This document shows, piece by piece, positions 32,534 to 52,805 of a DNA stretch of 59,088 bases (the first letter of the stretch is position 1; every line of letters starts with the position of its first letter). Both the position numbers and the translations under genes were made by a program. Origin of the DNA: Dactylosporangium siamense (GTDB lineage Bacteria > Actinomycetota > Actinomycetes > Mycobacteriales > Micromonosporaceae); contig NZ_BONQ01000157.1 in NCBI RefSeq assembly GCF_016862795.1, positions 1 through 59,088 on the forward strand, read 5' to 3'. Under the pieces are notes generated by a model. It was given only the letters and a program-made list of their open reading frames with translations. It did not search any database and was not told where the DNA came from.

Positions 32534-33739
32534 GTGACGATAACCAAGGTGGAGCCCGTGCCACGCCTGCAGCGGGCGCGGCTGGCCGTGGTGCTCGGCT
32601 CGCTCGCGGCGTTCGGCCCACTCACCATCGACATGTACCTCCCGGCGATGCCGGGCATGGCCCGCGACCTGCACACCAACACGCCGATGGTGCAGCTGAC
32701 CCTGACCGTCTTCGTGATCGGCCTCGCCGTCGGCCAGGTCGTCGCCGGGCCGCTGTCCGACACGTGGGGACGCCGCCGGCCCCTTCTCGCGGGCCTGGCC
32801 CTGTACGTCGCCGGCTCTCTGTGGTGCGCGCTCGCCCCCGACGTCGGCTGGCTGATCGCCGGCCGGGCCGTGCAGTCGCTCGGCGCCGCGACCAGCGTCG
32901 TGCTGTCCCGCGCGATCGTCCGGGACCTCTTCGAGGGCACCGCCATGACCCGCTTCTTCTCCACCCTCATGCTCGTCAACGGCGCCGCCCCGATCCTGGC
33001 ACCCGTCATCGGCGGCCAGCTCCTCGCCGTCGCGAGCTGGCCGGCGCTCTTCCTCGTCCTGGCGGCCTTCGGCGGCGTCCTGTCGCTGGTCGTCGCCCTT
33101 GCCCTGCCTGAGTCGCTGCCCGCCGAGCGCCGCCGCGCCGGCTTCCGCGACACGTTCGGCGCGTTCCGGGTGCTCGTCACCGACCGGCAGTACCTGCGCT
33201 ACGTCCTGACGGCGGCCCTGATGTTCGCCGCCGTGTTCGCCTACATCTCCGGCTCGTCGTTCGTCCTGCAGGACGTGCACGGGCTGAGCCCCCAGCAGTT
33301 CAGCCTCGTCTTCGGCGCGAACGGTCTCGGCATCGTGCTGTTCGGGCAGCTCAACGGCGTCCTCGTCGGCCGCGTCGCGGGCGAGCACGCGCTGCTGCGC
33401 ACCGGCCTCGGGGTCGCGGTCGCCGGCGCCGCCGGGGTCCTGCTCTGCGCCACGGCGGACCTGCCACTGCCGCTGCTGCTCGCCTGCCTGTTCGTCGTGG
33501 TGTCGATGCTCGGCCTGGTCCTCGCGAACGCCACCTCCCTCGCTCTGGCCGGGCACGCCCGGTCGGCGGGCGCGGCGTCGTCGCTGCAGGGGCTGCTGCA
33601 GTTCCTCGTCGCCGGTCTCGCCGCCTCCGCGATGGGCCTCGCCGGGCAGTCCACCGCCGTGCCGATGGCCGCGACGATGGCCGTCTGTGCCGCCGCGGCA
33701 CTCGCCGTCCTGATGGTGATGCGAGCCAGGCGACCTTAG
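32534..33739 (+). CDS. MFS drug exporter, Bcr/CflA type
   Basis: This is a 401-residue 12-helix major facilitator. The start 'LGSLAAFGPLTIDMYLPAMP' and 'GQVVAGPLSDTWGRRRPLL' (motif A) place it in the Bcr/CflA (DHA1) drug:H+ antiporter group, with 'RAIVRDLFEGTAMTRFFS' after helix 4. GTG 32534 overlaps an out-of-frame ATG, and no ribosome binding site is obvious, so translation may be leaderless. The divergent MarR gene is the likely regulator. It could export a drug or the product of the adjoining cluster. Its stop overlaps the convergent mqnB stop. Confidence 0.9.
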   Translation: MTITKVEPVPRLQRARLAVVLGSLAAFGPLTIDMYLPAMPGMARDLHTNTPMVQLTLTVFVIGLAVGQVVAGPLSDTWGRRRPLLAGLALYVAGSLWCALAPDVGWLIAGRAVQSLGAATSVVLSRAIVRDLFEGTAMTRFFSTLMLVNGAAPILAPVIGGQLLAVASWPALFLVLAAFGGVLSLVVALALPESLPAERRRAGFRDTFGAFRVLVTDRQYLRYVLTAALMFAAVFAYISGSSFVLQDVHGLSPQQFSLVFGANGLGIVLFGQLNGVLVGRVAGEHALLRTGLGVAVAGAAGVLLCATADLPLPLLLACLFVVVSMLGLVLANATSLALAGHARSAGAASSLQGLLQFLVAGLAASAMGLAGQSTAVPMAATMAVCAAAALAVLMVMRARRP

Positions 33740-34482
33740 GAAGCCGTCGCCAGGACTGCGAACGCGTCGCGGAGCGCACCCAGGGCCTGCGGGATCCGCC
33801 AGGCGGACCGGTCCCGCGGACCGACCTCGTTGGAGACGGCCCGCAGCTCGCCGAACGGCGTCCCGGCCGCGGACGCGGCGACCGCCACGCCGAAGCCTTC
33901 CATGCCTTCCGCCGTCGCGTCGTGTACCCGCCGGCGCAGCGCATCGGTCCGCGCGGCCGACCCGGTCGCGGTGCTGACGGTCACCACCGGCCCGACGGCC
34001 GCCGACGGCAAAGCCTGCCGCAGCAGCCGCAACAGCAGCGGATCGACGGCGTGACGGCTGCGGCCGAACCCGAGACGCTCCAGGTCGATGAAGCCGTCGC
34101 CGTCCTCGGCGCCGAGGTCCCCCGCCGCGCTGAGGCTGCCCAGGATGAGACCGCCGATGTCGGCCCTGCCGGGAAACGCGCCGCCGATCCCGGCGGACAG
34201 CACGGCGTCGAACGGCGAGCCCTCGCACTCCGCGCGCGTCAGCACCCGCGCGGTGGCCGCGGCGGCGTCGGCCGGACCGACCCCGCCGGCGACGACCAGC
34301 ACCGAATCCGGCCCGACCGCACCGACCCGCGGCTGGTCGTCCGGGGCGAGACCGAGGCCGGTGAGGACCGCCGCGCGCTCCGGCTCGACCGCGGTGACGA
34401 TCAGCACCCGCCGGAAGCCGGGCAGCCCCGGCAACGCGGAGAGGCCGGTCCCGGCGGGCCGGGCCGCGGCCGCCGGGTTCAC
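33736..34482 (-). CDS. mqnB: Futalosine hydrolase
   Basis: This 248-residue nucleoside hydrolase is of the MTA/SAH nucleosidase fold. It has 'VLIVTAVEPERAAVL' at the start, 'DAVLSAGIGGAFPGRADIGG', 'TAEGMEGFGVAVAA' and 'LRAVSNEVGPRDRSAWRI', all typical of futalosine hydrolases. MqnB removes the purine base from (amino)futalosine to give dehypoxanthine futalosine in the alternative menaquinone pathway. Its GTG overlaps the HAD gene stop (GTGA), so it is the last cistron of the PKS/FAAL/HAD operon. That is an unusual setting for a menaquinone gene. Confidence 0.85.
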   Translation of the reverse strand: MNPAAAARPAGTGLSALPGLPGFRRVLIVTAVEPERAAVLTGLGLAPDDQPRVGAVGPDSVLVVAGGVGPADAAAATARVLTRAECEGSPFDAVLSAGIGGAFPGRADIGGLILGSLSAAGDLGAEDGDGFIDLERLGFGRSRHAVDPLLLRLLRQALPSAAVGPVVTVSTATGSAARTDALRRRVHDATAEGMEGFGVAVAASAAGTPFGELRAVSNEVGPRDRSAWRIPQALGALRDAFAVLATAS

Positions 34483-35222
34483 CGCACGGCCTGCACGAGG
34501 TCGAGGACCGGGGCGAGGCCACGATCACCGGTGCGGTGCTCCGCCGGCAGGATGTAGCAGCGCAGCCCGGCGGCGGACGCGCCGCCGTCGCGGACCGGGT
34601 TGTCGCCGACCATGAGGGTCGCCCGCGGGTCCGCGCCCAGATCAGCGCACGCCTTGCGGAACAGCTCCGGGTCGGGCTTCTCCCGGCCGGCCTCGAAGGA
34701 CAGCGCGTAGGTGTCGACGAGGTCGCCGAGCCCGGCGCGGTCGACGTGCACGCGGATGTCCCAGCCGATGTCGCTGACGACACCGACCCGCACGCCGCGC
34801 TCCCGCAGCCCGCGCAGCACGGCGCCGGTGTCCTGGTAGGGCACCCATGAGTCGGCGTGCACGACCCTGGCCTGCGCCGCGGCCTCGTGCCCGCGCAGGA
34901 ACGGCACCGCGGCGAACCAGGCGAGCATCGCATCGCGGTGCCGGTCCGCGGTCAGGTCGCGGCCGACCTGCACGGCGAGGACCTCCGGCAGCTGGTAGGC
35001 GGCTGCCAGGTCGGCCTCGACCGCGGCGAGCGCGGCCGGGTCGTCGAGCTCGTCGGTGCGGCCGGTGTCGGCGGCGATCCGTCGCAGCCACACCGCCACG
35101 TCGATCATGTGGAAGATCGTGTTGGCGAAGTCGAAGAGCACCGCCTGCACCGGTGGCACCGGATCCGCCGAGGAGGCCGGGTCGCAGGCATACGCGGAGG
35201 GCGTGTCGAACAGGGTGCGCAT
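34479..35222 (-). CDS. HAD-superfamily hydrolase
   Basis: This 247-residue haloacid-dehalogenase-like protein has motif I altered to 'VLFDFANTIF' (D-x-A in place of D-x-D), motif II 'GVVSDIG', motif III Lys in 'GREKPDPELF' and motif IV 'LMVGDNPVRDGGAS'. The second motif-I Asp, usually the acid/base, is Ala, so phosphatase activity may be weak or the chemistry different. The ATG at 35222 is chosen; an in-frame GTG at 35246 would overlap the FAAL stop. It lies between the acyl-AMP ligase and mqnB in one operon. Confidence 0.8.
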   Translation of the reverse strand: MRTLFDTPSAYACDPASSADPVPPVQAVLFDFANTIFHMIDVAVWLRRIAADTGRTDELDDPAALAAVEADLAAAYQLPEVLAVQVGRDLTADRHRDAMLAWFAAVPFLRGHEAAAQARVVHADSWVPYQDTGAVLRGLRERGVRVGVVSDIGWDIRVHVDRAGLGDLVDTYALSFEAGREKPDPELFRKACADLGADPRATLMVGDNPVRDGGASAAGLRCYILPAEHRTGDRGLAPVLDLVQAVR

Positions 35223-35239
35223 CGCCACCACGCTACCGG

Positions 35240-36999
35240 TCACCACGCCTTGGGCCCACCGTCGGGCAGCAGGTCCCGGCTCCGTTTGCGCTGGACCTTG
35301 CCGCTGGTGGTGCGGGGCAGGCCGCCGGGGCGCAGCAGCGTCACCGACGCGACGTGCAGCTGGTGCTCGTCGGCGACGGCCCGGCGGACCGCGGCGACGA
35401 CGTCGTCGTACGCGACACCAGCGCCGCCGGCGGAGCGGTCGACGGAGCGGTCGACGCGGACCTGGCGGGCGGTCTCGGCGACGACGCCGAGCTGCCCGTC
35501 GTCGCCGAACGGGAACGCCGCCACGGCGTCGGCGGCGATCGCCGGGTGCGCGGCGGCGACGGTGCGTTCGATGTCGGTCGGGTAGTGGTTGCGGCCGTCG
35601 ACGATGATCAGGTCGTCGAGGCGGCCGAGGACGAACAGCTGCGCGTCGCGGACGAAGCCGAGGTCCCCGGTCCGCAGGTAGGTGGTGTCGGGCCGGTCCG
35701 CGAGCCGGCCGCCGAAGCGGGCCTCGGTCGCCTCCGGCTGCCGCCAGTAGCCGCCGGAGACGCTGTCGCCGGCGACCCAGATCTCACCGACCTGCTCCGC
35801 TGCCGCGGGTACCCCTGCGGCGACGATCCGCACGTCGAGGTTGGCGGGGATCCGGCCGCAGGCAACGATCTGCCGCGACGGGTGTCCCGGTCGTGCCGCG
35901 ACGACCTCGCCGCGCTCCGCGAGGGCCTCGGCGTCCAGGTCGGCAAGGCGGGCGTCGTCAGGGTTGCGGGCGCCGCTGACATACACGACCGCCTCGGCCA
36001 GACCGTAGCAGGGCCGCATGGTGTCGGCGCTGAACCCGGCGCCGGCGAACGCGTCCATGAAGCGGGTGAGGGTGCTGTGCCGCACGGGTTCGGCGCCGTT
36101 GAGCGCGATCCTCCACCCGCGCAGGTCAAGCCGGGCCTTCTGCTCCTCGGTGAGCTTGGCGACGCACAGCTCGTAGGCGAAGTTCGGCGCCGAGGAGACC
36201 CAGCCACGGTAGCGGCTGACCGCGTCCAGCCACACGAACGGGCGCATGAGCAACGCCATCGGCGGCAGCAGCACGACCCGGCCGCCGGCGTGCAGGGCGC
36301 CGATCAGCTGGGCGAGACCCATGTCGTGGAAGATCGGCAGCCAGCTCACGACGCTGAACTCGTCCGGCGGGCAGCTCCGCGCGTCGACGAGGACCTCGAT
36401 GGCGGCGGCGTTGGCCAGCACGTTGGCGTGGCTGAGCACGACACCCTTCGGCGCGCTGGTGGAGCCGGACGTGTACTGCAGGAATGCCGGGTCCTGCGAC
36501 CGCACGCCCGGGTCGCGCCACAGCACGGCGAGACCCGCCGGCACGTCGGCGACGACGATCGGCTCGACGCTGCCGAGGTCCGCGACCAGCGACGACTCCG
36601 CGTGCTGTGCGGTGGTGAGCACCACGGCAGGGTCGGCGTCCTTGACGATCCCGTCGAGCCGGCCGAGGGTCCGTTTCCCGCTGTGGATCGCGTCGGGCGC
36701 CGGTGACGGCACCGCGACGAGCCCGGCGTAGGCGCAGGCGAAGAACGCGACGACGAAGTCGGCGCCGTTGGGCAGCATGAGCATCGCCCGGTCCCCCGGC
36801 GACGCCGTCTGCTGCAACAGCGCCGCGGTGTCCCGGACCCGCCGGTCCAGCTCGGCGTAGGTGAGGGTGGTGACCTCCTCGCCGTGGCTGTCCAGCTCGA
36901 CGCAGGCGGGCCGGTCCGGCCGGACCCCGGCGTGGTGGCGCAGCAGGTCGCCGAGCGTGCGGACACCCTCGATCACCTGGACGGGGTGCCGGTCGGGCG

Positions 37000-37003
<4 letters not shown>
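35240..37003 (-). CDS. Fatty acyl-AMP ligase (FAAL)
   Basis: This 587-residue ANL-superfamily enzyme has the P-loop 'FLQYTSGSTSAPKGVVLSH' (residues about 174-192). The FAAL-type 'VSWLPIFHDMGLAQLIG', 'CYGLAEAVVYVSG' and 'YLRTGDLGFVRDAQLFVLGR' follow, and the C-terminal 'LPRTTSGKVQRKR' carries the catalytic Lys. FAALs activate a fatty acid as acyl-AMP and load it directly on an ACP, here probably the N-terminal ACP of the upstream PKS. The GTG start overlaps the PKS stop (GTGA), supporting a stoichiometric pair. No ACP is fused. Confidence 0.92.
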
Positions 37004-42051
<5,048 letters not shown>

Positions 42052-42063
42052 GCCACGCCTCCC

Positions 42064-42081
42064 ATGCTCGGTACCGAGCAT
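42064..42081. promoter_or_regulatory. Perfect 18-bp palindrome in the PKS leader
   Basis: ATGCTCGGTACCGAGCAT is fully self-complementary and ends 13 bp before the PKS start codon, between its ribosome binding site and the promoter. It is a candidate operator or an mRNA hairpin controlling the operon. Confidence 0.6.
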
Positions 42082-42093
42082 CGGCGATCACGG

Positions 42094-42109
42094 TTAGGAC
42101 ATTCCTTAG
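42094..42109. promoter_or_regulatory. Possible PAS-LuxR (PimM-like) site upstream of PKS
   Basis: TTAGGACATTCCTTAG, read on the minus strand, agrees with the published PimM-type consensus CTVGGGAWWTCCCBAG at 12 of 16 positions. It is flanked by the 8-bp inverted repeat atcggcga (42080-42087) and tcgccgat (42111-42118). It lies in the divergent PKS/rhomboid promoter region. Confidence 0.35.
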
Positions 42110-42160
42110 TTCGCCGATCATGCCGAGAGGAGCGAGCGCGCGACCGGTAGCGTAGGGGCA

Positions 42161-42895
42161 GTGACAACCGTCGAACCTCGCCGCCCAGCGGGCCTGCCGA
42201 TCGCCACCGTGATCTTCACGTTGATCACCGTGCTCGGTGCCGCGGCCCAGGTCAACGATCCCGGCGTCCTGACCCGCTTCCGCCGGGACTACCCCGCGTT
42301 GCACGACGGGGAGTGGTGGCGGTGGTTCACGCCGCTGCTGGTGCAGTCCGCCGGGTGGGGGCAGATCCTGTTCAACATCGGGTCGCTGATCGTCGTCGGG
42401 GTCATCGCCGAGCGCCGGTTCGGCACGTTGCGCTGGCTGGTGCTGTACGTCGGGATCGGCCTGGCCGGTGAGGCCTTCGGCGAGCGGCTCGACCCGACCG
42501 GCGCCGGCAACTCCCTCGCCGTCTGCGGCCTCGCCGGCGCCCTGGCGACGCTGCTGGTGCTGCGTCCCGGCGCGGCGACCCGCCCGCACGCGTTCGTCGT
42601 GCCGTACTACGTGGCGTGCGTGGCCGGGCTCGGCTTCGGCGGGATCCTCGGCGCGACCATCGCCCCGACCGCCGTACTGGTGATCATGAGCGTGCTGCTG
42701 CGCCAGGACACCTACACCGGGGTCGCGTTCTTTGCCGGGGTCGCCTCGCTGGTCGCCGCGGGCGCGCTCGCGGCACGGCCGGACCAGCACGGCATCGGCC
42801 TGGTCTGCGGCGCGGTCGCCGGGCTGCTGCTGTTCCCGCCGCGGCACCGCGCCGGGCGGGTCGGCCCGGAGTGGCCGGTGCCCGCGCGCCGCTGA
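42161..42895 (+). CDS. Rhomboid-family intramembrane serine protease
   Basis: This 244-residue polytopic membrane protein has 6 to 7 helices. 'RRDYPALHDGEWWRWFTPLLVQ' is the rhomboid L1 region, 'GAGNSLAVCGLAGAL' places Ser where the catalytic G-x-S-G serine sits (the following Gly is Leu), and 'DQHGIGLVCGAVAGL' supplies the His of the dyad. It should cleave membrane proteins within the bilayer, though the altered active-site loop leaves activity uncertain. GTG 42161 follows AGGGG. It is divergent from the PKS operon and its link to the cluster is unknown. Confidence 0.85.
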   Translation: MTTVEPRRPAGLPIATVIFTLITVLGAAAQVNDPGVLTRFRRDYPALHDGEWWRWFTPLLVQSAGWGQILFNIGSLIVVGVIAERRFGTLRWLVLYVGIGLAGEAFGERLDPTGAGNSLAVCGLAGALATLLVLRPGAATRPHAFVVPYYVACVAGLGFGGILGATIAPTAVLVIMSVLLRQDTYTGVAFFAGVASLVAAGALAARPDQHGIGLVCGAVAGLLLFPPRHRAGRVGPEWPVPARR

Positions 42896-42910
42896 CCGCT
42901 GGATCGCGAA

Positions 42911-42937
42911 GGCCCGGCACCCTGGGGGTGCCGGGCC
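42911..42937. terminator. Bidirectional terminator between rhomboid and PPTase genes
   Basis: A perfect 12-bp GC stem (ggcccggcaccc at 42911-42922 and its complement at 42926-42937) with a 3-nt loop lies between convergent stops, followed on the plus strand by 'gttcatct'. Confidence 0.8.
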
Positions 42938-42950
42938 GTTCATCTGTCTG

Positions 42951-43676
42951 TCAGGCTGCGTACGCCGGCTGCCGGGCCGGGACCGCGATGCCGGTGAGCA
43001 CCAGGCCGCGGCCGACGAGCCAGCGGCCGCCGAAACCGCCGACCTCGACCCCGCCGACGACCGGGCCGGGCACCAGCAGCCACGCGTGGAACGTCTCGCG
43101 CTGCGCGGAGATCGTGACGGTGGCCTCGGTGAAGTCCAGCCAGCGGCCGGTCAGCGGATACCAGGCCTTGAACACCGACTCCTTGATGCTGAACAGCAGC
43201 CGGTCCCAGTGCACCCCGGGCCGCTGCGCGGCCAGCTGCCGCAGGTGCCGGCGCTCCTCGGCGAGCGTGATGCTGTCCAGGACCCCGTCGGGCAGCGGCT
43301 CGTGCGGCTCGGCGTCGATGCCGATGGTGGTGAGCTGCCCGGCACGGGCGATGGCCGCGGCCCGGTAGCCGGCGCAGTGGGTGATGGTGCCGACGATGCC
43401 GTCGGGCCACAGCGGCTCCCGGCGCGGCCCGGACGGGATCGCGACCGGTCCGATCCCGAGCCGGCCGAGCGCCTCCCGGGCGCAGCGGCGGGCCGTCATG
43501 AACTCCGCCCGACGCTTCGCGACCGCGTTGCCGAGCGCCGCGAGCTCCTGCGGGAACAGCGGCGCCGGCAGCGCGTCGTCGAAGGCCTCGACGACGGCCG
43601 TGCCGGCCGGCAGGAGCCGGCCGAGCAGGGTCAGCGCACCCGCGTCCGCCGCCGGGCCGGCCGTCGTCACGGTCAT
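42951..43676 (-). CDS. 4'-phosphopantetheinyl transferase (Sfp/EntD type)
   Basis: This 241-residue PPTase transfers phosphopantetheine from CoA to the Ser of ACP domains. The family motifs are 'GIVGTITHCAGYRAAAIA', 'IGIDAEPHEPLPDGV' (Mg-binding Asp and Glu) and 'LLFSIKESVFKAWYPLTG' (catalytic Glu and Lys). It is the most likely activator of the PKS carrier domains in this region. Its ATG overlaps the ferredoxin stop (ATGA), and it is the last gene of the operon that begins with the aryl-acid ligase. Confidence 0.92.
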   Translation of the reverse strand: MTVTTAGPAADAGALTLLGRLLPAGTAVVEAFDDALPAPLFPQELAALGNAVAKRRAEFMTARRCAREALGRLGIGPVAIPSGPRREPLWPDGIVGTITHCAGYRAAAIARAGQLTTIGIDAEPHEPLPDGVLDSITLAEERRHLRQLAAQRPGVHWDRLLFSIKESVFKAWYPLTGRWLDFTEATVTISAQRETFHAWLLVPGPVVGGVEVGGFGGRWLVGRGLVLTGIAVPARQPAYAA

Positions 43677-43978
43677 GCCGTCGGCGCTTCCGGTCCGTAC
43701 ACCTCCACGCCGTCGTGCTGCCGGCGCACGTGGATGCAGTCGCCGGGACACTCGTTCGCGGAGTCGATGACGTCCTGGGCCGCGACCAGCGGCACCAGCA
43801 CGGCCGTGCGGGGCGTGTGCCGCAGCTCCCCGTCGTCGCCCTTGACGTAGGCGAGCCCGTCCACGTCGAGCTCGAAGACATCCGGTGCGTACTGCACACA
43901 GATCCCGTCGCCGGTGCACAGCCCCTGGTCGATCCAGACCTCGAGCTGCTCCTCCTGCGGTGCCGTCGTCGCGGTCAT
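43673..43978 (-). CDS. Ferredoxin, single-cluster type
   Basis: This 101-residue protein has one Fe-S cluster site: 'CTGDGIC' near residue 21, then 'ANECPGDCIHV' near residue 76. The central Cys of the first motif is replaced by Asp, as in actinobacterial [3Fe-4S]/[4Fe-4S] ferredoxins that serve P450 and other enzymes. It has unusual N- and C-terminal extensions of about 15 residues. In this operon it could supply electrons to the radical SAM enzyme MqnE (reductive SAM cleavage) or to a P450 outside the window. Confidence 0.88.
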   Translation of the reverse strand: MTATTAPQEEQLEVWIDQGLCTGDGICVQYAPDVFELDVDGLAYVKGDDGELRHTPRTAVLVPLVAAQDVIDSANECPGDCIHVRRQHDGVEVYGPEAPTA

Positions 43979-44024
43979 CCGCGCTCACCTGCCTCGTCTT
44001 GTCGGTCGATGGCCGGCACGGGGG

Positions 44025-45191
44025 TCAGACCCGCATCGGCTGGGGCGTCTCGCGACGCGCCTGGTCGGGGCCCTCGAACTCGCGGATGATCTCGTAGCGG
44101 GTGTTGCGCTCGACCGGCCGGAAACCGGCGTTGCGGATCAGGTCGAGCAGGCTCTCGCGGGTCATCTTGTCCGGGGTGCCGAACTCGTCGGCGTCGTGGG
44201 TGATCTTGTACTCGACGACCGAGCCGTCGATGTCGTCGGCACCGTGGTTGAGCGCCAGCTCCGCGGTCTGCAGGCCGTGCATCACCCAGAACACCTTGAC
44301 GTGCTGGACGTTGTCGAACAGCAGCCGCGACACCGCGAAGGTCTTGAGCGCCTCGGCGCCGGTCGCCATCGTCGTGCGGGCCATCAGCTTGTTGCGGATC
44401 TTGCCGTCGCGCGAGTCGTGGAAGTCGTGCTGGTACCGCAGCGGGATGAACACGTGGAAGCCGCCGGTCTCGTCCTGCAGCTCCCGCAGGCGCAGCACGT
44501 GGTCGACGCGGTGCTTCGGCTCCTCGATGTGCCCGTACAGCATCGTGCACGGGGTCTTGAGGCCCTTGCTGTGCGCGAGCCGGTGGATGCGCGACCAGTC
44601 CTCCCAGTGGGTGGCGTGATCGACGATGTGCTGGCGGACCTCCCAGTCGAAGATCTCCGCGCCGCCGCCCGTCAGGGACTCCAGACCGGCGTCGATGAGC
44701 TCGTCGAGGACCTCGTCGGCCGACAGCCCGGAGATGCGCTCGAACCAGTGGATCTCCGTCGCGGTGAAGGCCTTGACCGCCACCGTTGACGGCAGGGCCT
44801 CCTTCAGCGCCCGGATCGAGCGCGGGTAGTAGCGCCACGGCAGCGTGGGGTGCAGGCCGTTGACGATGTGCAGCTCGGTGAGCTGCTCGGCCTCCATCGA
44901 CTTCGCCAGCCGGACCGCGTCCTCGATCCGCATCGTGTAGGCGTCCTTCTCCCCCGGCTTGCGCTGGAAGGAGCAGTACGCGCACGACGCCGTGCAGACG
45001 TTCGTCATGTTCAGGTGCCGGTTGACGTTGAAGTGGACCACGTCACCGTTCTTCTTCGTGCGCACGTGGTGCGCCAGTCCGCCGAGCCACGCGAGGTCGT
45101 CGCACGCGTACAGCGCGATGCCGTCCTCGCGGCTGAGCCGCTCTCCGGCGAAGACCTTCGCCTCCAATTCCCGCTTCAGACCTGTGTCCAC
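44025..45191 (-). CDS. mqnE: Aminofutalosine synthase (radical SAM)
   Basis: This is a 388-residue radical SAM enzyme. The cluster motif 'CTASCAYCSFQ' is preceded by 'FNVNRHLNMTNV', and conserved segments include 'TELHIVNGLHP', 'GLESLTGGGAEIFDWEVRQ' and 'TMLYGHIEEP'. The length and the whole sequence agree with streptomycete MqnE rather than MqnC or CofG/CofH. MqnE joins 3-(1-carboxyvinyloxy)benzoate to the adenosyl radical to form aminofutalosine. It sits 41 bp after the ligase gene and 46 bp before the ferredoxin gene, in one operon with a PPTase. Confidence 0.93.
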   Translation of the reverse strand: MDTGLKRELEAKVFAGERLSREDGIALYACDDLAWLGGLAHHVRTKKNGDVVHFNVNRHLNMTNVCTASCAYCSFQRKPGEKDAYTMRIEDAVRLAKSMEAEQLTELHIVNGLHPTLPWRYYPRSIRALKEALPSTVAVKAFTATEIHWFERISGLSADEVLDELIDAGLESLTGGGAEIFDWEVRQHIVDHATHWEDWSRIHRLAHSKGLKTPCTMLYGHIEEPKHRVDHVLRLRELQDETGGFHVFIPLRYQHDFHDSRDGKIRNKLMARTTMATGAEALKTFAVSRLLFDNVQHVKVFWVMHGLQTAELALNHGADDIDGSVVEYKITHDADEFGTPDKMTRESLLDLIRNAGFRPVERNTRYEIIREFEGPDQARRETPQPMRV

Positions 45192-45232
45192 CTACGACTC
45201 CTCATCGACTTGTGTGGGCTTGCGAGCGAGGC

Positions 45233-46312
45233 TCAGTAGAGCCCTTCCGGCGCGGCGGACGTGATCTGCAGCGGCCGCACGTTGGCGACGGCGTCACATG
45301 GCCACGCGTCCCCGGCCCGGAGCCGGACCGCCTGGTCGCGCTCCATGATGTTGGGCAGGAAGAGGTCGTCGTGCAGGACCGTGAGCCGCACCCGGCCGGT
45401 CTCGCCGTAGCCGACCGTCCGCCGCGGGTCCTCCTTGTCGACGACCGCCATCGTGACCTGCGGGTAGTTCGGCAGGTACGGCAGGACGGCGCCGTCGCGC
45501 TCGACCGGCAGGCCCATCGCGCAGCCGAACGTGTTGCCGTACGTCATGCCGATCAGGCCGCCCTGCAGCGCCTCGGCGATCTCGGTGTACATCGACGGGG
45601 TCAGCTGGGTCCCGCCGAGCCCGACGCCCTCCAGCCCGGCGACGAGCTCGGGGCGGCGGGAGATGAGCGCCTGCAGGATCGCCGGCGTCGTCTCCAGGTA
45701 GTGCACCCGGCCGGTCTCCAGCACGTCGGTCATCTGCTCGATGGTGTGCTCGACGTACATGTTCATCTCGACGAGCCGGCTGTCGCGGATCAGCGTCTTG
45801 ATCCACCGCGGGTCGAGGTCCATCGTGTAGACCGTCGAGTCGTACAGCTCGGCGATCTGGTTCGCGCCGCGCCCGACGATGTGCGGGCCGCTCGGGCACG
45901 CGTAGAGCCAGGTGCGGCCCGGTTCGAAGCCGGTGAGCCGCAGCCCCCGCAGGCGCCAGGCGGTGTGGTGCTCGGCCATCGACGCGGTGTGGAAGATGCG
46001 GCACGGCTTGCCGGTGGTGCCGCCGGACTCCCAGATCCGCCCGGCCAGCGGGCGCGGCACGTCGGACGGCACCAGCTGCACCGGGTCGAGGTCCCGCAGC
46101 GTGGCCAGGGAGAACGGCCCGAACTGGGCGAGGTCGTCGTAGCGGGTGATGGCGAGTGGGTCGAACCCGAGGTGCGGCCTGCGGGCCAGCCAATACGGGC
46201 TGCCGGTCGCCGGGTCGAAGTGCCGGCGCACCACGCGCACGGTCCACTCGTCGAGGTCGGCGGCCAACCACGCGTCGGTGAGCGCCGCGGCCGGCTCCAA
46301 AACGGTCGTCAT
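45233..46312 (-). CDS. PaaK/EhpF-like acid adenylating protein lacking the C-terminal domain
   Basis: This is a 359-residue ANL-superfamily protein. The P-loop is 'ESGGTTGKPCRIFH', the A5-like motif is 'GMTYGNTFGCAMGLP' and the A7-like segment is 'GYGETGRVRLTVLHDDLFLP'. It ends soon afterwards, without the small C-terminal subdomain that carries the catalytic Lys, so it is about 70 residues shorter than phenylacetate-CoA ligase. The same truncated layout is known from EhpF, which acts on an aromatic acid in phenazine antibiotic biosynthesis. An aryl acid is therefore the likely substrate (inference). It leads the operon with mqnE. AAGGA precedes the ATG at 46312. Confidence 0.82.
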   Translation of the reverse strand: MTTVLEPAAALTDAWLAADLDEWTVRVVRRHFDPATGSPYWLARRPHLGFDPLAITRYDDLAQFGPFSLATLRDLDPVQLVPSDVPRPLAGRIWESGGTTGKPCRIFHTASMAEHHTAWRLRGLRLTGFEPGRTWLYACPSGPHIVGRGANQIAELYDSTVYTMDLDPRWIKTLIRDSRLVEMNMYVEHTIEQMTDVLETGRVHYLETTPAILQALISRRPELVAGLEGVGLGGTQLTPSMYTEIAEALQGGLIGMTYGNTFGCAMGLPVERDGAVLPYLPNYPQVTMAVVDKEDPRRTVGYGETGRVRLTVLHDDLFLPNIMERDQAVRLRAGDAWPCDAVANVRPLQITSAAPEGLY

Positions 46313-46581
46313 CGATTCGTCCTTCGGGTGCCGGAAGCGATGAGCCCGGCTGGATGCACCGGACACGGGGAACTGCGGCGGTCGATGGCCTGCAGGTCCT
46401 GCCCGGACGGCGACCGACGCACTTGTGCTGCTGGCATCGTGCCGTGGCGGAGATTGGGGAAATCACCACACTTGATCCGCATGCGAAGAGGCCGCCACCA
46501 CGAACCGGGACAAGCCGCGCGTGCGAGCCGTAAGATCCGGCAGCACGATCAATGCGTCTCCCGCCTCCGGGAAGGGGCTCC
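46313..46581. promoter_or_regulatory. Bidirectional promoter region ligase-mqnE operon / mqnD
   Basis: This 269-bp gap separates the divergent ligase operon and the mqnD-regulator run and must hold both promoters. No gene is visible. It contains the PimM-like site at 46454-46469. Confidence 0.6.
46454..46469. promoter_or_regulatory. PAS-LuxR (PimM-like) binding site candidate
   Basis: TTGGGGAAATCACCAC matches the published PimM-type consensus CTVGGGAWWTCCCBAG at 13 of 16 positions (mismatches at 1, 12 and 16). It lies centrally between the divergent ligase-mqnE and mqnD transcripts, and a PAS-LuxR regulator is encoded 9.5 kb away in the same cluster. Confidence 0.5.
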
Positions 46582-47454
46582 ATGGACGACCGGCCGCTGT
46601 CCATCGCGTATTCGCCGTGTCCCAATGACACCTTCGTCTTCCACGCGTGGACGCACGGCGTCCTGCCGGGTGCGCCCGCGACGGCCGTCACCCACGCCGA
46701 CATCGACGTCACCAACCATCTGGCCGGCAGCGACCGGTTCGACGTCATGAAGATCTCCTACGCGGCGCTGCCCGGCTTCCTGGGCCGTTTCGCGCTCGTG
46801 CCCTGCGGCGGGGCCCTCGGCCGGGGCTGCGGCCCGCTGCTGGTCGCCCGCGAGGAGCGCACGGCGGCCGAGCTGGGCCGCTCCGTCGTCGCCGTGCCGA
46901 GCAAGCAGTCCACGGCGTACCTGCTGCTGCGGCTGTGGGCCGAGCGCGGCGTCCCGGGCGGCTTCGGCCGCATCGTCGTCATGCCGTTCCACGAGATCAT
47001 GCCCGCGGTCCGCGACGGCGTGGTCGACGCCGGCCTCATCATCCACGAGGCCCGCTTCACGTATCACACGTACGGCCTGCGGGAGCTGGTCGACCTCGGC
47101 CGGTTCTGGGAGGAGGACACGGGCCTGCCGATCCCGCTCGGAGCGATCGTGGCCCGCCGCGACCTCGGCGCCGGGCGCATCGCCGCGGTCACCGACGCCG
47201 TCCGGGCGTCCGTGCGGCACGCGTGGGTGCACCCCGAAGCGTCGCAGAGCTACATCCGCGAGCACGCGCAGGAGATGGCGCCGGAGGTGACGGCGCAGCA
47301 CATCGCCCTGTATGTCAACGCCTTCACCGAGGACCTCGGCGACGCCGGCCTGGCCGCCGTCCGCGCGCTGCTGGACCGCGCCGCCTCGGCCGGGCTCTGC
47401 CCGGCGGTTCCGCCCGGCGCCCTCGATGCGGTACAACCGTCGCCCGTGCCCTGA
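46582..47454 (+). CDS. mqnD: 1,4-dihydroxy-6-naphthoate synthase
   Basis: This 290-residue periplasmic-binding-protein-fold enzyme is of the MqnA/MqnD family. 'IAYSPCPNDTFVFHAWTHG' at the N-terminus is the MqnD signature, followed by 'DVMKISYAALPGFLGRF', 'VAVPSKQSTAYLLLRLW' and 'DAGLIIHEARFTYHTYGL'. MqnD converts cyclic dehypoxanthine futalosine to 1,4-dihydroxy-6-naphthoate, an aromatic carboxylic acid. GAAGGGG precedes the ATG at 46582. It leads a plus-strand run that continues into regulator genes, which links it to the cluster. Confidence 0.92.
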   Translation: MDDRPLSIAYSPCPNDTFVFHAWTHGVLPGAPATAVTHADIDVTNHLAGSDRFDVMKISYAALPGFLGRFALVPCGGALGRGCGPLLVAREERTAAELGRSVVAVPSKQSTAYLLLRLWAERGVPGGFGRIVVMPFHEIMPAVRDGVVDAGLIIHEARFTYHTYGLRELVDLGRFWEEDTGLPIPLGAIVARRDLGAGRIAAVTDAVRASVRHAWVHPEASQSYIREHAQEMAPEVTAQHIALYVNAFTEDLGDAGLAAVRALLDRAASAGLCPAVPPGALDAVQPSPVP

Positions 47455-47494
47455 AGCAGTCCAGCTCCACCCGACCCCGGAGGTACACCCGCCC

Positions 47495-47881
47495 ATGAAG
47501 GCTTCCCCGTCCGCCGTGCGCCCGCTCAGCATCGTCGCCGCCGCCGTCCTCGCCCTGATCGTCTGGTTCATCGCCCGTCAGGTCGCCGGCGACCTGGTCG
47601 TCAAGTCCGGCGGCAGCACCCAGACGGTCGGCGTGGCCTCGGTCATCCTGAGCGTCGTCGTCGTCGGCCTCCTCGGCTGGGGCCTGCTCGCCCTGCTGGA
47701 GCGCATCACCGCGAAGGGCCGCACGATCTGGACCGTCATCGCGGTCATCTTCCTGCTGCTGTCGCTGCTCGCGCCGCTCGGCGGCCTCGACACCGGCACG
47801 AAGGTCTCCCTCGCGCTGCTGCACCTGCTGGTCGGAGCCGTGATCATCACCGGGTTCACCCGGACGCCGGCGCGCACCTGA
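47495..47881 (+). CDS. Four-helix membrane protein (DUF6069-like)
   Basis: This 128-residue integral membrane protein has four hydrophobic helices starting with 'LSIVAAAVLALIVWFIARQV' and ending with 'LLHLLVGAVIITGFTRTPA', which fits the DUF6069 type. The function is unknown. CGGAGGT precedes the ATG at 47495. It lies 40 bp after mqnD and 53 bp before the first LAL regulator, so all three are probably cotranscribed. Confidence 0.75.
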   Translation: MKASPSAVRPLSIVAAAVLALIVWFIARQVAGDLVVKSGGSTQTVGVASVILSVVVVGLLGWGLLALLERITAKGRTIWTVIAVIFLLLSLLAPLGGLDTGTKVSLALLHLLVGAVIITGFTRTPART

Positions 47882-47934: not shown

Positions 47935-50595
47935 ATGACACCGCAGGCCGCCGAACCGGACCGCAGCACCGGCACCACGCCGGCCCGCGACGGCCGGCCG
48001 GTGCTGCCGGACGTCGAGGCCGTCGCGGTGGTCCTGATCACCGGGGCGAGCGGCACGGGCAAGACCACACTGCTGCGGACACCGGCCGGGCCGGGCGTGA
48101 CGGTGCTGTCCGCGACCTGCACGGAGGCCGGCGCCGCGGTGGACTTCACCGCGGCCCGGCAGCTGCTGCCCGCCCAGCCGCGCAGCGGCACCCAGGTCGT
48201 GGCCGCCGACGGCGGCCACCGCACCGTGCTCCACCTGTACCGGCGCGCGCTGGGCCTGCTGCAGTTCGGCCCGGTCCGGCTCGTCGTCGAGGACGCCCAC
48301 TGGTGCGACGCGGCGACCCTGCGCTGGCTGCACTACCTGCTGCGGCGCTGCACCAACCGGCCGCTGCAGGTGGTGCTCGCCGTCGAACCCCGCGAGCACC
48401 CGGCGCTCAACACCCTCTTCGCCGACATCCTCGGCACCCCGCGGCAGCTGATCCTCGACCTCGACGCGCCGGAGCACGCCGGCACCGAGCCGCGCATCGA
48501 CCGGCTGCGCCGCTTCCTGAGCCGCCAGCCGAACCTGCTGCGGGTCGCCGTCGCCACCGCCGTGCTGCAGCGGACCGACGCCGAACTGGTCGGCGCGCTC
48601 GCCGGGCTCCCGCCGCAACTCGCCGTCGCGCGGCTCTCAACGCTGCGCAACACCGGCATCGTGACCGGCGAGGCGGACCAGCCGGTGCCGCCGGCCGTGG
48701 CCGCGGAGCTGCTCGGCCTGCTCGCCGCCGATGAGCTGCAGCAGCTGTGCCGCCGGGCCGCGTTCATGCTCAACGACGCCGACGCGCCCGTGCAACGCCT
48801 CGCCGAGGTGCTGCTGGAGCTGCGCGACCTCGACGAACCCTGGATGCTGGAGCGCCTCCGCGACGCGGCCACCCGCGCCTACCGGCACGACGCACCGGCG
48901 GCGGTCCGCATCTGGACGCGGCTGCTGGCCGCGCAGCCGCAGTCGCCGGACGCCGCCGTCGACCTCGCCGTCGCGCTGCTCAACGTCGACCCGACCGCCG
49001 CGCTCGTGCACGCCCGGCAGGCGCTGCCGCGCTCCGGCGACGCCCGCACGAAGGCCAGGGCCGTGGTCTGCGTGGGGCTCGCCGCGCTCGTCACCGGCCG
49101 GGAGCCGACCGCGCCCTACCTGCTGCACGACGCCATGGAGACGCTGCGGCGCACCGCCGGCAGCGCCCCCTCGCTGCGGGACCGCATCCAGCTCGCGACC
49201 GTCGACTCGACCCTCGCCGCCAACGCCGTCATCGGCGGCACCACCTACCACACCGTCCGCTCACGCATCGGCGAGGCACCGGCCAGCGTCGCCGGCGCCT
49301 CCTCCACCCACCGGATGCTCGCCGTGCACGCGCTCACCACCGCCTACGAGGGCCTCGAGGTCCAACAGGCGGCCCGGTACGCCCGGCTCGTGCTGGACCG
49401 TCCGGTGATGGGCGACAGCTGGGCGCCGCTGATGGCGACCCGGGTGCTGCTGATGACCGACAACACCGCCGGGGCCCTGACCGCGGCGAGCCGGCTGGCC
49501 CTGCACCACCGCGACCGCGGCGAACCCTGCGCCGAAGCGGTCGCCCGGGCGACCTGGGCGCACGTGCTGCTGGAGGTCGGCGAGCTGGACGCCGCCTGGA
49601 CCGAGGCGACGACGGCGCTGCGCCTGGCAGGGGACGGCGACTGGGGCGCCGCGACCTGGTCCGCGCACACGATCATCTCGCTGATCAACAGCTCGCAGGC
49701 GCGGATCCTCGCGGCCGAGGCGGGCCTGGAGGCGATCCACGAACGCGGCTCCGAACTGCCGCTCTGGGAGCAGGTGCAGGCCGTCGGGGCGACGGCCCAC
49801 GCCGCCTACTGGGCGCAGGACTACGACCGGGCGCTGCAACGGCTGCGGGTCTGCGGGCAGGTCATCGAGGAGGCCGGGGTATGCAGCCCGGCCTTCAGCA
49901 GCTGGTGGCTCGACGAGATCATCCTGCTGGGGCTGCGCGGCCGCCGCAGCGAGGCGCACCTGCGCCTCGAGCAGGCCGAGGAGCAGTGCCGGCGGTGGCG
50001 GACCCCGCGGACGGCGGGCATGGCCCTGCTTGCCAGGGCCTCGCTCACCGAGCAGGGCGCCAAGGTCGAGCTGCTGCTCGGTGCCCTCGCCGAGCTGGAG
50101 CACTCACCGGCGCCGCTGCACCAGGTGAAGGCGCAGCTGATGCTCGGCCGGACGCTGACGGAGCTGGGCGACCGCACCGCCGCCCGCCGGCACCTGCGGG
50201 ACGGGATGGTGCTGTCCAACCGGCTCGGCTACATGATGCTCGCCGCGCACTGCCGCAACGTGCTCAGCTCCGCCGGCGGGCGCACCGGCACCGAGCTCGC
50301 CGCGTGCGGTGAGCTGTCCAGCAGCGAACGGGCCGTCGCGCGGCTGGCGGCCGGCGGCGCGACCAACCGGCAGATCTCCGAGGAGCTGTTCATCTCCGTG
50401 CGGACCGTCGAGTTCCACCTCACCAACGCCTACCGGCGGCTAGGGATCCGCCGCAGGGACGCCCTGGCCGGCATCGTCGAGCCGATGCCGCTGACCCGGC
50501 GGGCCACCGCCCCGTCCCGGCGGGCCACCGCCCCGCCCCGGCCCGGCGGCCCTGCCTCGGGGTCCGCCGCCGGACCGGCCGAGGCGACGTCATGA
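47935..50595 (+). CDS. LuxR-family LAL regulator 1 (P-loop + TPR-like + HTH)
   Basis: This is an 886-residue LAL-type regulator. The Walker A motif is 'ITGASGTGKTTLL' (residues about 35-47), a Walker B-like segment is 'RLVVEDAHWCDAATLRWL', a long helical repeat middle follows, and the C-terminal LuxR helix-turn-helix contains 'ATNRQISEELFISVRTVEF'. LALs are pathway activators of macrolide and polyene clusters. The stop codon overlaps the start of the next LAL gene (ATGA). A Pro/Ala-rich tail of about 45 residues follows the HTH. Confidence 0.9.
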   Translation: MTPQAAEPDRSTGTTPARDGRPVLPDVEAVAVVLITGASGTGKTTLLRTPAGPGVTVLSATCTEAGAAVDFTAARQLLPAQPRSGTQVVAADGGHRTVLHLYRRALGLLQFGPVRLVVEDAHWCDAATLRWLHYLLRRCTNRPLQVVLAVEPREHPALNTLFADILGTPRQLILDLDAPEHAGTEPRIDRLRRFLSRQPNLLRVAVATAVLQRTDAELVGALAGLPPQLAVARLSTLRNTGIVTGEADQPVPPAVAAELLGLLAADELQQLCRRAAFMLNDADAPVQRLAEVLLELRDLDEPWMLERLRDAATRAYRHDAPAAVRIWTRLLAAQPQSPDAAVDLAVALLNVDPTAALVHARQALPRSGDARTKARAVVCVGLAALVTGREPTAPYLLHDAMETLRRTAGSAPSLRDRIQLATVDSTLAANAVIGGTTYHTVRSRIGEAPASVAGASSTHRMLAVHALTTAYEGLEVQQAARYARLVLDRPVMGDSWAPLMATRVLLMTDNTAGALTAASRLALHHRDRGEPCAEAVARATWAHVLLEVGELDAAWTEATTALRLAGDGDWGAATWSAHTIISLINSSQARILAAEAGLEAIHERGSELPLWEQVQAVGATAHAAYWAQDYDRALQRLRVCGQVIEEAGVCSPAFSSWWLDEIILLGLRGRRSEAHLRLEQAEEQCRRWRTPRTAGMALLARASLTEQGAKVELLLGALAELEHSPAPLHQVKAQLMLGRTLTELGDRTAARRHLRDGMVLSNRLGYMMLAAHCRNVLSSAGGRTGTELAACGELSSSERAVARLAAGGATNRQISEELFISVRTVEFHLTNAYRRLGIRRRDALAGIVEPMPLTRRATAPSRRATAPPRPGGPASGSAAGPAEATS

Positions 50596-52805
50596 CCGAG
50601 CCGGCCCGGGCCGCCGGGACCGCTGCCGCCTGGTGGCGGTCCGTGCCCGCCGCCGCGGGCGGAGGCGCCTTCGACGCCGACGGCGCCTTCGCCGCCCACA
50701 CCGAGGCGCTGCTCGCCGCCGCGGCCGCCGGCGACCCGGCGGCGTTGCTGGCCGCCATGCGCCGCAGCGGCCTGCGCGACCCGGACGTCGACGGGCTCAA
50801 CGCCGCCTGCCGCGAGGTGCGGCGCGACCTCGTCGCCGGGCGGCTCGCCCTGCTGTCCGCCCCGCAGCTGCGCGGGTTGCGGATCCGGGCGCTGCTCGGC
50901 CCCGGAGTGCCCGAACGCCTCGCGGCGGGACTCACCCACGGCCTCCCCGGCTGTTCCGGAATCGACCCCACCGACCCGCTCGTCGCCGACGTCGTGCTCG
51001 CCGCGATGGACGGCGCCGAACGGGCCGCGCTGCGCCGGCACGCCGCCGAGACCGCCAACGACCTGGGCCTGCCGCCCGTCCTCGTCGGCCGGCTGCTGAG
51101 CGCGACCGAGCCCGGCTGGCCCAGCTGGGCGCTGGAGGCGCTGCTGGCCGCCGCCGCGGCCGCCGCGACCGAACGCAACTGGGAGACCGCCGCGACGCTG
51201 TACGACCGGGCACTGCGCGAGCCGATGGACGACACTCTGCGGCTGACGACCTCGCTGGCGCTCGGCGACGCGCAGCTGACCTGCTCCCCGGAGGCCGCCG
51301 ACCGCACGTTCCGCACGGTGCTGCGCACGGCACCGGACGGCGGGGCGCTGACGGTGCGGCTCGCGGCCGCGGACCGGCTCCTGGTCCGCGGCGACGACGA
51401 GACCGCGCGCCGCGCGCTGGCCGCCGCCCATCACCGTACGGCCACCGCACCGCCCTCGCACGCCGGTGAACCCGCGGCGCTCGCGGCGCTGTACTGGCTC
51501 GCGGCCGACCGGGCCGGCACCCCGCCCGAGCTGACCTCCGACCGGGTGCCCGCCCTCGACGGCGCCGCTGCGGACCCCGCCGGGCGCGGGGTCCTGGCCT
51601 GGCGCGAAGCGGTCGCGGGCGACGACCTGGACCGCACCCGCCGGCACGCCCTGGCCGCGCTGGACCCGCCGGCCGGTGCGGTGGTGCCGCCGGCCGTGCA
51701 GGTGGCGGCGGCCCGCGCGCTGATGGTGACCGAGGACTTCGACGCGGCCGAGCACCGCCTCAACGGGCTCGTCGAGGCATCCCGCGGCGCCGGCGGGCAC
51801 GCCGCCCGGCCGCTGGCGGCGCGGGCCGAGCTGTGGCTGCGCACCGGCCACCTCGCCGAGGCCGAACGCGACCTCCACGACCTGCAGCAATGCCTGCCGG
51901 AGCAGTCCTGGCACCCCAGTGCCCTGCCGCGGCTGCGGGCGCTGCAGCTCATGCAGCTGCTCGCCACCGGCCGTAGGGAGCAGGTCGGTGCGGCGCTGGG
52001 CGAGCCGCTGCCGCCGGGCAGCGACCAGGGCGTCGCCTGGGCGTACCTGCTGTACGCCCGGGCCGTCGCCGAGGCCGCCGACGGTCACGTCGACGCCGCC
52101 GTGCGGATGCTGCACGAGTGCGGCCGCCGCTGCCTGTCGGCCGGGCACCGCAACCCGGCCCTGCTGCCCTGGCGGTCCCAGGCGGCGCTGTGGGAGCACG
52201 TCCGCGGCGACGACACCGAAGCTGCCGCGCTGCTGCGGGTGGAGCGGCAGGCCGCCGAGCGGTGGGGAGCCGCCGGCACCGTCACGCTCACCGAGCTGCG
52301 GGCGGCGCTGCTGCACGGCGACGGGGTGAGCAGGGCGGACCGGGCCGTCGTGGCGCTGTGGGCGGCGATGCGGGGCGGCTGGTCGGCCGAGGCGCTGCTG
52401 ACGCTGGAGAGCGCCGCGGCGGGCCGCCCGATGTCCGCGGCGGCCGACGCGGCCGTGCGTGCCGCGGCCCGGATCGGGCCCGGCAGCGGCTGGAGCGTCA
52501 GGGTCGGCGGCACCAGCGCGGCCAAGGCGGCCAGGAGCGTCGCGGTGCCCCGCAACGCCGGCCGCACCGACCGGCGGCCGGTGTCCGGCGGCGACGCCGG
52601 GAACCTGTCCGCGGCCCAGCTGCGGGTCGCGGAGCTGGCGGCGAACGGGCTGCCGAACGCCGCGATCGCCGAGATCCTCGCCATCACCAAGCGCACCGTG
52701 GAACTGCACCTGAGCAACGCGTACCGGAAACTCGGAATTTCCAACAGATCGGAACTTTCCGATGTGCTGTATGGCGCGGCTGGGGAACACTCTCCGGTGT
52801 GCTGA
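50592..52805 (+). CDS. LuxR-family regulator 2, LAL-like but without a P-loop
   Basis: This is a 737-residue protein made of Ala-rich helical repeats with a C-terminal LuxR helix-turn-helix ('LSAAQLRVAELAANGLPNAA' and 'ITKRTVELHLSNAYRKLGIS'). Unlike its neighbours it has no Walker A or B motif, and the N-terminus starts directly with helices, so the ATPase module has been lost. It starts on an ATGA overlap with LAL 1 and overlaps LAL 3 by 7 bases. It may act as a partner of one of the ATPase-bearing LALs. Confidence 0.85.
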   Translation: MTEPARAAGTAAAWWRSVPAAAGGGAFDADGAFAAHTEALLAAAAAGDPAALLAAMRRSGLRDPDVDGLNAACREVRRDLVAGRLALLSAPQLRGLRIRALLGPGVPERLAAGLTHGLPGCSGIDPTDPLVADVVLAAMDGAERAALRRHAAETANDLGLPPVLVGRLLSATEPGWPSWALEALLAAAAAAATERNWETAATLYDRALREPMDDTLRLTTSLALGDAQLTCSPEAADRTFRTVLRTAPDGGALTVRLAAADRLLVRGDDETARRALAAAHHRTATAPPSHAGEPAALAALYWLAADRAGTPPELTSDRVPALDGAAADPAGRGVLAWREAVAGDDLDRTRRHALAALDPPAGAVVPPAVQVAAARALMVTEDFDAAEHRLNGLVEASRGAGGHAARPLAARAELWLRTGHLAEAERDLHDLQQCLPEQSWHPSALPRLRALQLMQLLATGRREQVGAALGEPLPPGSDQGVAWAYLLYARAVAEAADGHVDAAVRMLHECGRRCLSAGHRNPALLPWRSQAALWEHVRGDDTEAAALLRVERQAAERWGAAGTVTLTELRAALLHGDGVSRADRAVVALWAAMRGGWSAEALLTLESAAAGRPMSAAADAAVRAAARIGPGSGWSVRVGGTSAAKAARSVAVPRNAGRTDRRPVSGGDAGNLSAAQLRVAELAANGLPNAAIAEILAITKRTVELHLSNAYRKLGISNRSELSDVLYGAAGEHSPVC

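What the first reader, a model, noticed from the sequence alone, without database searches (positions are those of the whole stretch)
33736..47454. Futalosine-pathway enzymes embedded in a PKS/FAAL gene cluster
mqnB is the last cistron of an operon with a PKS-aminotransferase, a FAAL and a HAD protein, and two of its junctions are GTGA overlaps. mqnE lies in an operon with an EhpF-like aryl-acid adenylating protein, a ferredoxin and a PPTase. mqnD heads the run that encodes the cluster regulators. Known family functions put these enzymes at aminofutalosine formation, base removal and 1,4-dihydroxy-6-naphthoate formation. The inference is that an aromatic acid from this pathway is activated and used as a building block of a polyketide or lipid product. 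MqnA and MqnC are missing here and could come from the right of the window or from primary metabolism.
Basis: partly seen in the sequence, partly recalled or inferred. Interest (0 to 1): 0.88.

Follow-up and report, generated by a model that had tools for sequence, protein, structure and literature searches.

The report
Vitamin-K pathway duplicated inside antibiotic cluster
A soil bacterium carries a second full set of the genes that start vitamin K synthesis inside a large antibiotic-type gene cluster, most likely to make a naphthoquinone building block; one such system is already known, and this is a new and more complete variant.

Summary
The window (whole contig C157 of a 12.7-Mb genome, same genus as Dactylosporangium fulvum and D. 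aurantiacum) carries MqnB, MqnE and MqnD in a polyketide cluster with an EhpF-like ligase, ferredoxin, PPTase, FAAL-like ligase, PKS-aminotransferase and regulators. MqnA and MqnC lie on contig C158; two related complete genomes show both contigs to be one cluster, cut inside a PKS gene. Four of seven genomes of the genus have the second set.

Best reading: a dedicated futalosine branch makes 1,4-dihydroxy-6-naphthoate for a naphthoquinone part of a glycosylated polyketide-peptide. The kind is known: the PM100117/118 cluster has MqnA, C, E, D and a ferredoxin. New here: MqnB included, NRPS and a probable beta-amino-acyl unit, and EhpF-like ligase plus AT-like acyltransferases. Eleven of 392 genomes of a Streptomyces-like genus also carry a second MqnE-ferredoxin-MqnA-MqnC cassette; cassette-linked EhpF proteins form one clade; in seven of the eleven, MqnE and/or MqnC look converted by the primary copies, MqnA does not. 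Product and attachment chemistry are inferred.

The parts
33736..34482 (-). MqnB2, futalosine hydrolase, last gene of its operon; left border of the cluster
   Evidence: TIGR03664 over cut-off; 57% to primary copy; the seven queries left of it were not found in the G001, G004, G006 loci
34479..35243 (-). HAD-family hydrolase, role unknown
   Evidence: Pfam; conserved in G001, G004, G006
35240..37003 (-). FAAL-like acyl-AMP ligase (start set at the GTGA overlap)
   Evidence: Pfam AMP-binding; NCBIfam below cut-offs; junction
37000..42081 (-). PKS with KS-AT-ACP and aminotransferase
   Evidence: Pfam; aminotransferase part matches mycosubtilin synthase A 6kfm, E 2e-127
42161..42895 (+). Rhomboid-family protein, conserved at this place
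   Evidence: Pfam; 73-87% in G001, G004, G006
42951..43676 (-). 4'-phosphopantetheinyl transferase (start set at the ATGA overlap)
   Evidence: Pfam; junction
43673..43978 (-). Ferredoxin, 101 aa
   Evidence: sequence; beside MqnE in G001, G004, G006 and in 11 of 11 g103 cassettes
44025..45191 (-). MqnE2, aminofutalosine synthase
   Evidence: TIGR03700 over cut-off; 78% to primary copy
45233..46366 (-). EhpF-like acyl-adenylating protein, proposed naphthoate ligase
   Evidence: EhpF structures 3hgu/3l2k, E 1e-48; clade of cassette-linked relatives
46552..47454 (+). MqnD2, 1,4-dihydroxy-6-naphthoate synthase
   Evidence: PF02621; 2czl; 57% to primary copy
47312..47881 (+). DUF6069 protein (true start probably further right)
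   Evidence: Pfam
47935..55540 (+). Three large LuxR-type regulators (ORFs 47935-50595, 50592-52805, 52118-55540; the third start is probably later)
   Evidence: GerE domains; conserved in G001, G004, G006
55524..56783 (+). PAS-LuxR regulator (start probably later)
   Evidence: Pfam; conserved
56945..59023 (-). C-terminal part of a modular PKS that continues on contig C158
   Evidence: Pfam KR and ACP; C158 holds the N-terminal part, 67-70 bp away in G001 and G004

Best explanation
The region is the left part of a large polyketide-NRPS cluster (at least 84 kb on C157 and C158 here; about 118 kb from MqnB to the last PKS-side AMP-ligase gene in D. fulvum, right border not set) that carries its own complete futalosine branch. 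MqnA2 and MqnC2 (C158) with MqnE2, MqnB2 and MqnD2 (window), helped by a dedicated ferredoxin, would turn chorismate into 1,4-dihydroxy-6-naphthoate (DH6N) apart from the respiratory set. The EhpF-like protein would activate DH6N as acyl-adenylate, one or both AT-like acyltransferases would pass it on, and it would end as a naphthoquinone group of the glycosylated product, as in PM100117/118. Shown by sequence: gene set, duplication, conservation, link with EhpF. Inferred: DH6N as end product, EhpF as its ligase, acyl transfer, place on the product.
For: All five mqn genes duplicated and clustered. Cluster conserved in G001, G004, G006. PM100117 precedent with deletion data. EhpF beside MqnE in 4 of 4 clusters of the genus; EhpF and double MqnC overlap in 4 genomes of 392 (14 EhpF, 11 double MqnC; one-sided Fisher p 0.0003, kinship not corrected) and 8 cassette-linked EhpF form one clade at 86/81. 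An AT-like match in 16 of 16 EhpF loci covered widely enough.
Against: No product or enzyme activity known. EhpF with AT-like partner also occurs in 9 tree rows without a cassette (8 of them checked for AT, 8 with it), and 10 of 14 EhpF genomes of g103 have no second MqnC. G725 lies in the cassette clade without mqn on the 60 kb read. PM100117 is reported without an EhpF gene in its table. Two cassettes with EhpF, G715 and G917, have no MqnD in 140 kb.
Confidence: 0.65

Rival explanations
1. DH6N is loaded by the FAAL-like ligase onto the PKS-aminotransferase, extended once and aminated to a beta-amino-beta-naphthyl propionyl unit; EhpF and AT do something else.
For: MqnB is in the same operon with GTGA overlaps. 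In PM100117 a CoA-ligase-type PKS (GonP8) is proposed to extend the naphthoate, and G917 has such a ligase-PKS next to EhpF.
Against: The aminotransferase part matches mycosubtilin synthase A, which makes a beta-amino fatty acid (recalled); FAAL-type enzymes usually take fatty acids (recalled).
Confidence: 0.2
2. The second set is a spare or extra supply for respiratory menaquinone that happens to sit in the cluster.
For: The enzymes are family members over cut-off; in S. caniferus the outside mqnD copy can partly replace gonM4.
Against: Tight operon links with ligase, PPTase, HAD and PKS in four genomes; the PM100117 precedent. Late menaquinone genes were not seen among the cluster proteins scanned, but were not searched for as such.
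Confidence: 0.05
3. An earlier intermediate (aminofutalosine, dehypoxanthine futalosine or its cyclic form), not DH6N, is the building block.
For: Two related cassettes with EhpF, G715 and G917, have no MqnD within 140 kb.
Against: This cluster keeps MqnD in all four genomes of the genus; the primary MqnD could serve in G715 and G917.
Confidence: 0.05

Closest known systems
PM100117/PM100118 (gon) cluster of Streptomyces caniferus GUA-06-05-006A (PMC4763440: abstract, passages and section 6 seen; PMC5103430: passages seen)
   Same: MqnA, MqnC, ferredoxin, MqnE and MqnD in a type I PKS cluster with deoxysugar and glycosyltransferase genes and LuxR regulators, beside a separate primary set
   Different: Here MqnB is included, there it lies outside the cluster; here 13 KS motifs in D. 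fulvum plus two NRPS proteins against 21 modules and no NRPS in its table; here EhpF-like and AT-like proteins, there GonSL, GonP8, two KSIII and a methyltransferase
EhpF of the phenazine (D-alanylgriseoluteic acid) operon of Enterobacter agglomerans, structures 3hgu and 3l2k
   Same: Same short acyl-adenylating protein family over residues 35-371 of 377
   Different: Distant in sequence; context here is naphthoate genes and AT-like partner, not phenazine
Mycosubtilin synthase A
   Same: Aminotransferase part (6kfm, E 2e-127) in a PKS with KS and AT
   Different: Here the ligase is a separate protein and the acyl substrate is unknown
Primary futalosine set of Streptomyces coelicolor (SCO4506, SCO4327, SCO4550, SCO4326, SCO4494; numbers as in PMC4763440)
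   Same: Same five activities by family; MqnA2 matches SCO4506 (2nxo, E 2e-118)
   Different: Cluster copies are 57-78% identical to this genome's own primary copies and lie with secondary-metabolite genes

Membership tests
Futalosine pathway enzymes | MqnB, MqnE and MqnC over curated cut-off | tested here: met
   TIGR03664 213/124.7, TIGR03700 521/434.55, TIGR03699 462/428
Futalosine pathway enzymes | MqnA and MqnD assigned within PF02621 | tested here: met
   closest structures SCO4506 2nxo for MqnA2 and 2czl for MqnD2; best matches to the matching primary copies; no NCBIfam hit for either
Futalosine pathway enzymes | enzyme activity | not testable with these tools
   needs the bench
PM100117-type naphthoquinone cluster | second MqnA, C, D, E and ferredoxin within a type I PKS cluster, primary set elsewhere | tested here: met
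PM100117-type naphthoquinone cluster | GonSL, GonP8, KSIII pair and GonMT | tested here: inconclusive
   gon sequences were not at hand; no KSIII in the proteins scanned from C157, C158 and G001, but not every ORF was scanned
PM100117-type naphthoquinone cluster | product with a naphthoquinone | not testable with these tools
   no product known
EhpF family | sequence match over nearly the whole chain | tested here: met
   3hgu, residues 35-371 of 377, E 9.2e-49
EhpF family | aryl-acid adenylation | not testable with these tools
   substrate inferred from gene context only
Fatty-acyl-AMP ligase (FAAL) | over a curated FAAL cut-off | tested here: not met
   NF004509 408.6 bits against 775, NF009124 370.1 against 922; hence 'FAAL-like'
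Acyltransferase (PF00698) for the C158 AT-like protein | over Pfam cut-off | tested here: not met
   29.1 against 32.7 bits; but 3im8 at E 6.3e-17; hence 'AT-like'

The most novel reading that the evidence does not exclude
A respiratory-quinone route has become a transferable building-block cassette (MqnE, ferredoxin, MqnA, MqnC, often MqnD and here MqnB) that passed from a Streptomyces-like lineage to Dactylosporangium and serves different product types. EhpF-like ligase with AT-like acyltransferase is a new way to activate and attach the naphthoate. In many hosts the two radical SAM genes are repeatedly overwritten by the respiratory copies while MqnA is not.
Probability: 0.4. Interest if true: 0.75.

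Novelty: new variant of a known kind. Interest (0 to 1): 0.62.

Why it matters
It turns one published case (PM100117) into a recurrent module, present in named culture-collection strains (D. fulvum NRRL B-16292, D. aurantiacum NRRL B-8018) where it can be tested. A second MqnC, or the EhpF/AT clade, becomes a marker for finding naphthoquinone-bearing natural products. If the conversion pattern holds, it is a case of primary metabolism renewing enzymes of a secondary pathway.

Tried and rejected
A classical menaquinone pathway as respiratory source: MenD best 57.8 bits against 244.2; only MenD was searched.

EhpF as a marker of the futalosine pathway in the 201 relatives: the 6 genomes with a close EhpF (58-100% identity) all have MqnE, against 113 of 201 overall, but 5 of the 6 are one genus, so I do not use it. 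NRPS adenylation codes by pattern search were incomplete and unreliable and are not used. No paper on EhpF itself was among the 8 listed of 358; the EhpR paper (PMC3175449, passages only) says that EhpF-O, EhpJ excepted, act after phenazine dicarboxylate. DH6N as starter of the main PKS: its first KS has a cysteine active site and a protein with AMP-binding and PP-binding matches lies beside it in G001; left open, thought less likely. No structure prediction was run.

Novelty statement rests on search listings (open-access PMC; 10 to 30 titles listed per search of up to 2,460 hits). Among the listed papers only PMC4763440 and its sequel PMC5103430 were seen to describe futalosine genes or their naphthoquinone in a gene cluster; PMC6355912 (passages) reports cyphomycin, whose cluster resembles PM100117. 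Other listed papers that hold the word futalosine were not opened. Subscription papers are not covered.
Full report
What is there. The window is the whole contig C157 of a 12.7-Mb draft genome. G004 and G006 are 'same genus', and the lengths and places of their contigs equal those of the named loci L047 (D. fulvum) and L046 (D. aurantiacum). The three futalosine genes are family members and their neighbours are as described. Three junctions of the MqnB operon are GTGA overlaps; EhpF-MqnE-ferredoxin-PPTase are spaced by 41 bp, 46 bp and an ATGA overlap.

The missing genes. The own genome holds four MqnA/D-family genes, five genes of the MqnE/MqnC/CofH kind in six rows, and two MqnB genes over cut-off. 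C87 and C83 hold one full set: MqnE, MqnA, MqnC on C87; MqnB, MqnD on C83. The second MqnA and MqnC lie side by side on C158, with PKS, NRPS, sugar and glycosyltransferase genes. No MenD over cut-off. Identity of cluster to primary copies: B 57, E 78, D 57, C 68, A 61%.

One cluster. In D. fulvum (G004) and G001, both with the region on one contig, all queries from MqnB2 to the third glycosyltransferase lie within 62-63 kb, in one general order apart from a local inversion around MqnA-MqnC. D. aurantiacum (G006) shows the same from MqnB to the edge of the 80 kb fetched, where NRPS2 and AT were not reached. MqnB2 aligned over only 160 of 248 residues in G001. C157 ends and C158 begins inside one PKS gene: the halves map 70 bp (G004) and 67 bp (G001) apart, and both contig ends carry CCCGCCGCGGCGGG. 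None of seven queries left of 33.74 kb was found in the G001, G004 and G006 loci at E 1e-15. Of seven genomes of the genus (G000-G006) four have a second MqnC and MqnE, three have one of each.

Architecture. The D. fulvum PKS genes hold 13 KS motifs; the two NRPS proteins of C158 hold two A and three C domains each; proteins with AMP-binding and PP-binding matches follow in G001. Sugar genes include an RfbH-like protein, epimerase-type proteins, a GFO/IDH/MocA protein and three glycosyltransferases. Two AT-like proteins lie in tandem on C158, one at 35612-36553, the other starting at 35589.

Spread. In 11 of 11, a MqnE, a ferredoxin and a MqnA lie within about 6 kb of the second MqnC. MqnD is in the stretch fetched in 6 of 11; in G699 a MqnD lies about 143 kb and an EhpF about 127 kb from the cassette, so one or two clusters. 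A MqnB-like match is near only the G699 cassette. EhpF at E 1e-100 is in 14 of 392; 4 of these are among the 11. In the EhpF tree (12 of those 14, 6 from the family of the window, 3 outgroup rows) the 8 cassette-linked rows fall in one clade (86/81) with G725, and the 9 rows without a cassette fall outside. An AT-like match was found in 16 of 16 EhpF loci covered widely enough: G000, G001, G004, G005, G053, G642, G667, G668, G699, G715, G725, G728, G735, G803, G917, G925; G006, G722, G838 and G910 were not covered. In G715 it lies some 42 kb from EhpF. G925 and G699 also share RfbH (74-75%) and a glycosyltransferase (61-69%) with this cluster.

History. In the MqnC and MqnE trees the Dactylosporangium cluster copies fall with g103 rows and apart from their own primary copies (100/100); in searches MqnE2 is nearest to g103 outside its genus (up to 88%, against 83% for the next family seen). 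This points to transfer; trees held only these two groups and are rooted at the midpoint. In the MqnA tree 14 of 15 cassette copies form one clade (91/84), with G644 outside on a long branch. In G217, G644, G681, G739, G789, G816 and G818, cassette MqnC and MqnE fall among the primary copies instead. DNA identity to the same genome's primary copy is 95.7-100% over about the coding sequence in 12 of these 14 gene pairs (exceptions G644 MqnE 86.9%, G816 MqnC 89.6%), while MqnA in the same cassettes is 73-76%. In G699, G715, G917 and G001 the MqnE and MqnC values are 78-91%. I read this as gene conversion by the primary copies; re-recruitment of the primary genes is not excluded and no formal test was run.

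Function and comparison. PM100117/118 is the known case (PMC4763440: abstract, passages, section 6; PMC5103430: passages). There gonM1-4 are MqnA, C, E, D with a ferredoxin, mqnB lies outside, and deleting gonM4 lowers product and gives forms without naphthoquinone. The present cluster is the same idea with MqnB added and a different activation and assembly set. For EhpF as ligase: it is beside MqnE in 4 of 4 clusters of the genus, and its cassette-linked relatives form a clade. Against certainty: EhpF and AT also serve clusters without mqn genes, and G917 pairs EhpF with a ligase-PKS like the one proposed for PM100117, so another ligase may take DH6N. The product is unknown.

Noticed in passing
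G217, G644, G681, G739, G789, G816, G818 cassettes (L116-L121, L126-L133) against primary loci L138, L139, L142-L144, L149, L150: Cassette MqnE and MqnC are 95.7-100% identical in DNA to the same genome's primary copy in 12 of 14 pairs, while MqnA between or beside them is 73-76%: looks like gene conversion of the two radical SAM genes.
   Followed up: partly
G005, G053, G642, G667, G668, G728, G735, G803 (EhpF loci without a cassette): EhpF-like and AT-like genes occur together in PKS or deoxysugar surroundings with no mqn genes in the stretch read; the acid they use is unknown.
   Followed up: partly
G715 and G917 (L124-L125, L134-L135 and neighbours): Cassette with MqnE, ferredoxin, MqnA, MqnC and an EhpF-like gene but no MqnD in 140 kb; they may rely on the primary MqnD or use an earlier intermediate.
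   Followed up: partly
window 59072-59088 and left end of C158: The assembly breaks inside a PKS gene at a GC-rich palindrome present at both contig ends.
   Followed up: yes
C158 28885-33299; G004 C1:6216109-6220624; G006 C19:92747-97118: The block epimerase-MqnC-MqnA-glycosyltransferase is turned round relative to its neighbours between species.
   Followed up: no
window 31168-31818: ORF matching only positions 175-267 of 288 of the GH43 profile, perhaps a gene remnant left of the cluster.
   Followed up: no
L183 (G803:C26:78986-80074): EhpF-like reading frame with one TAG stop inside the match.
   Followed up: no
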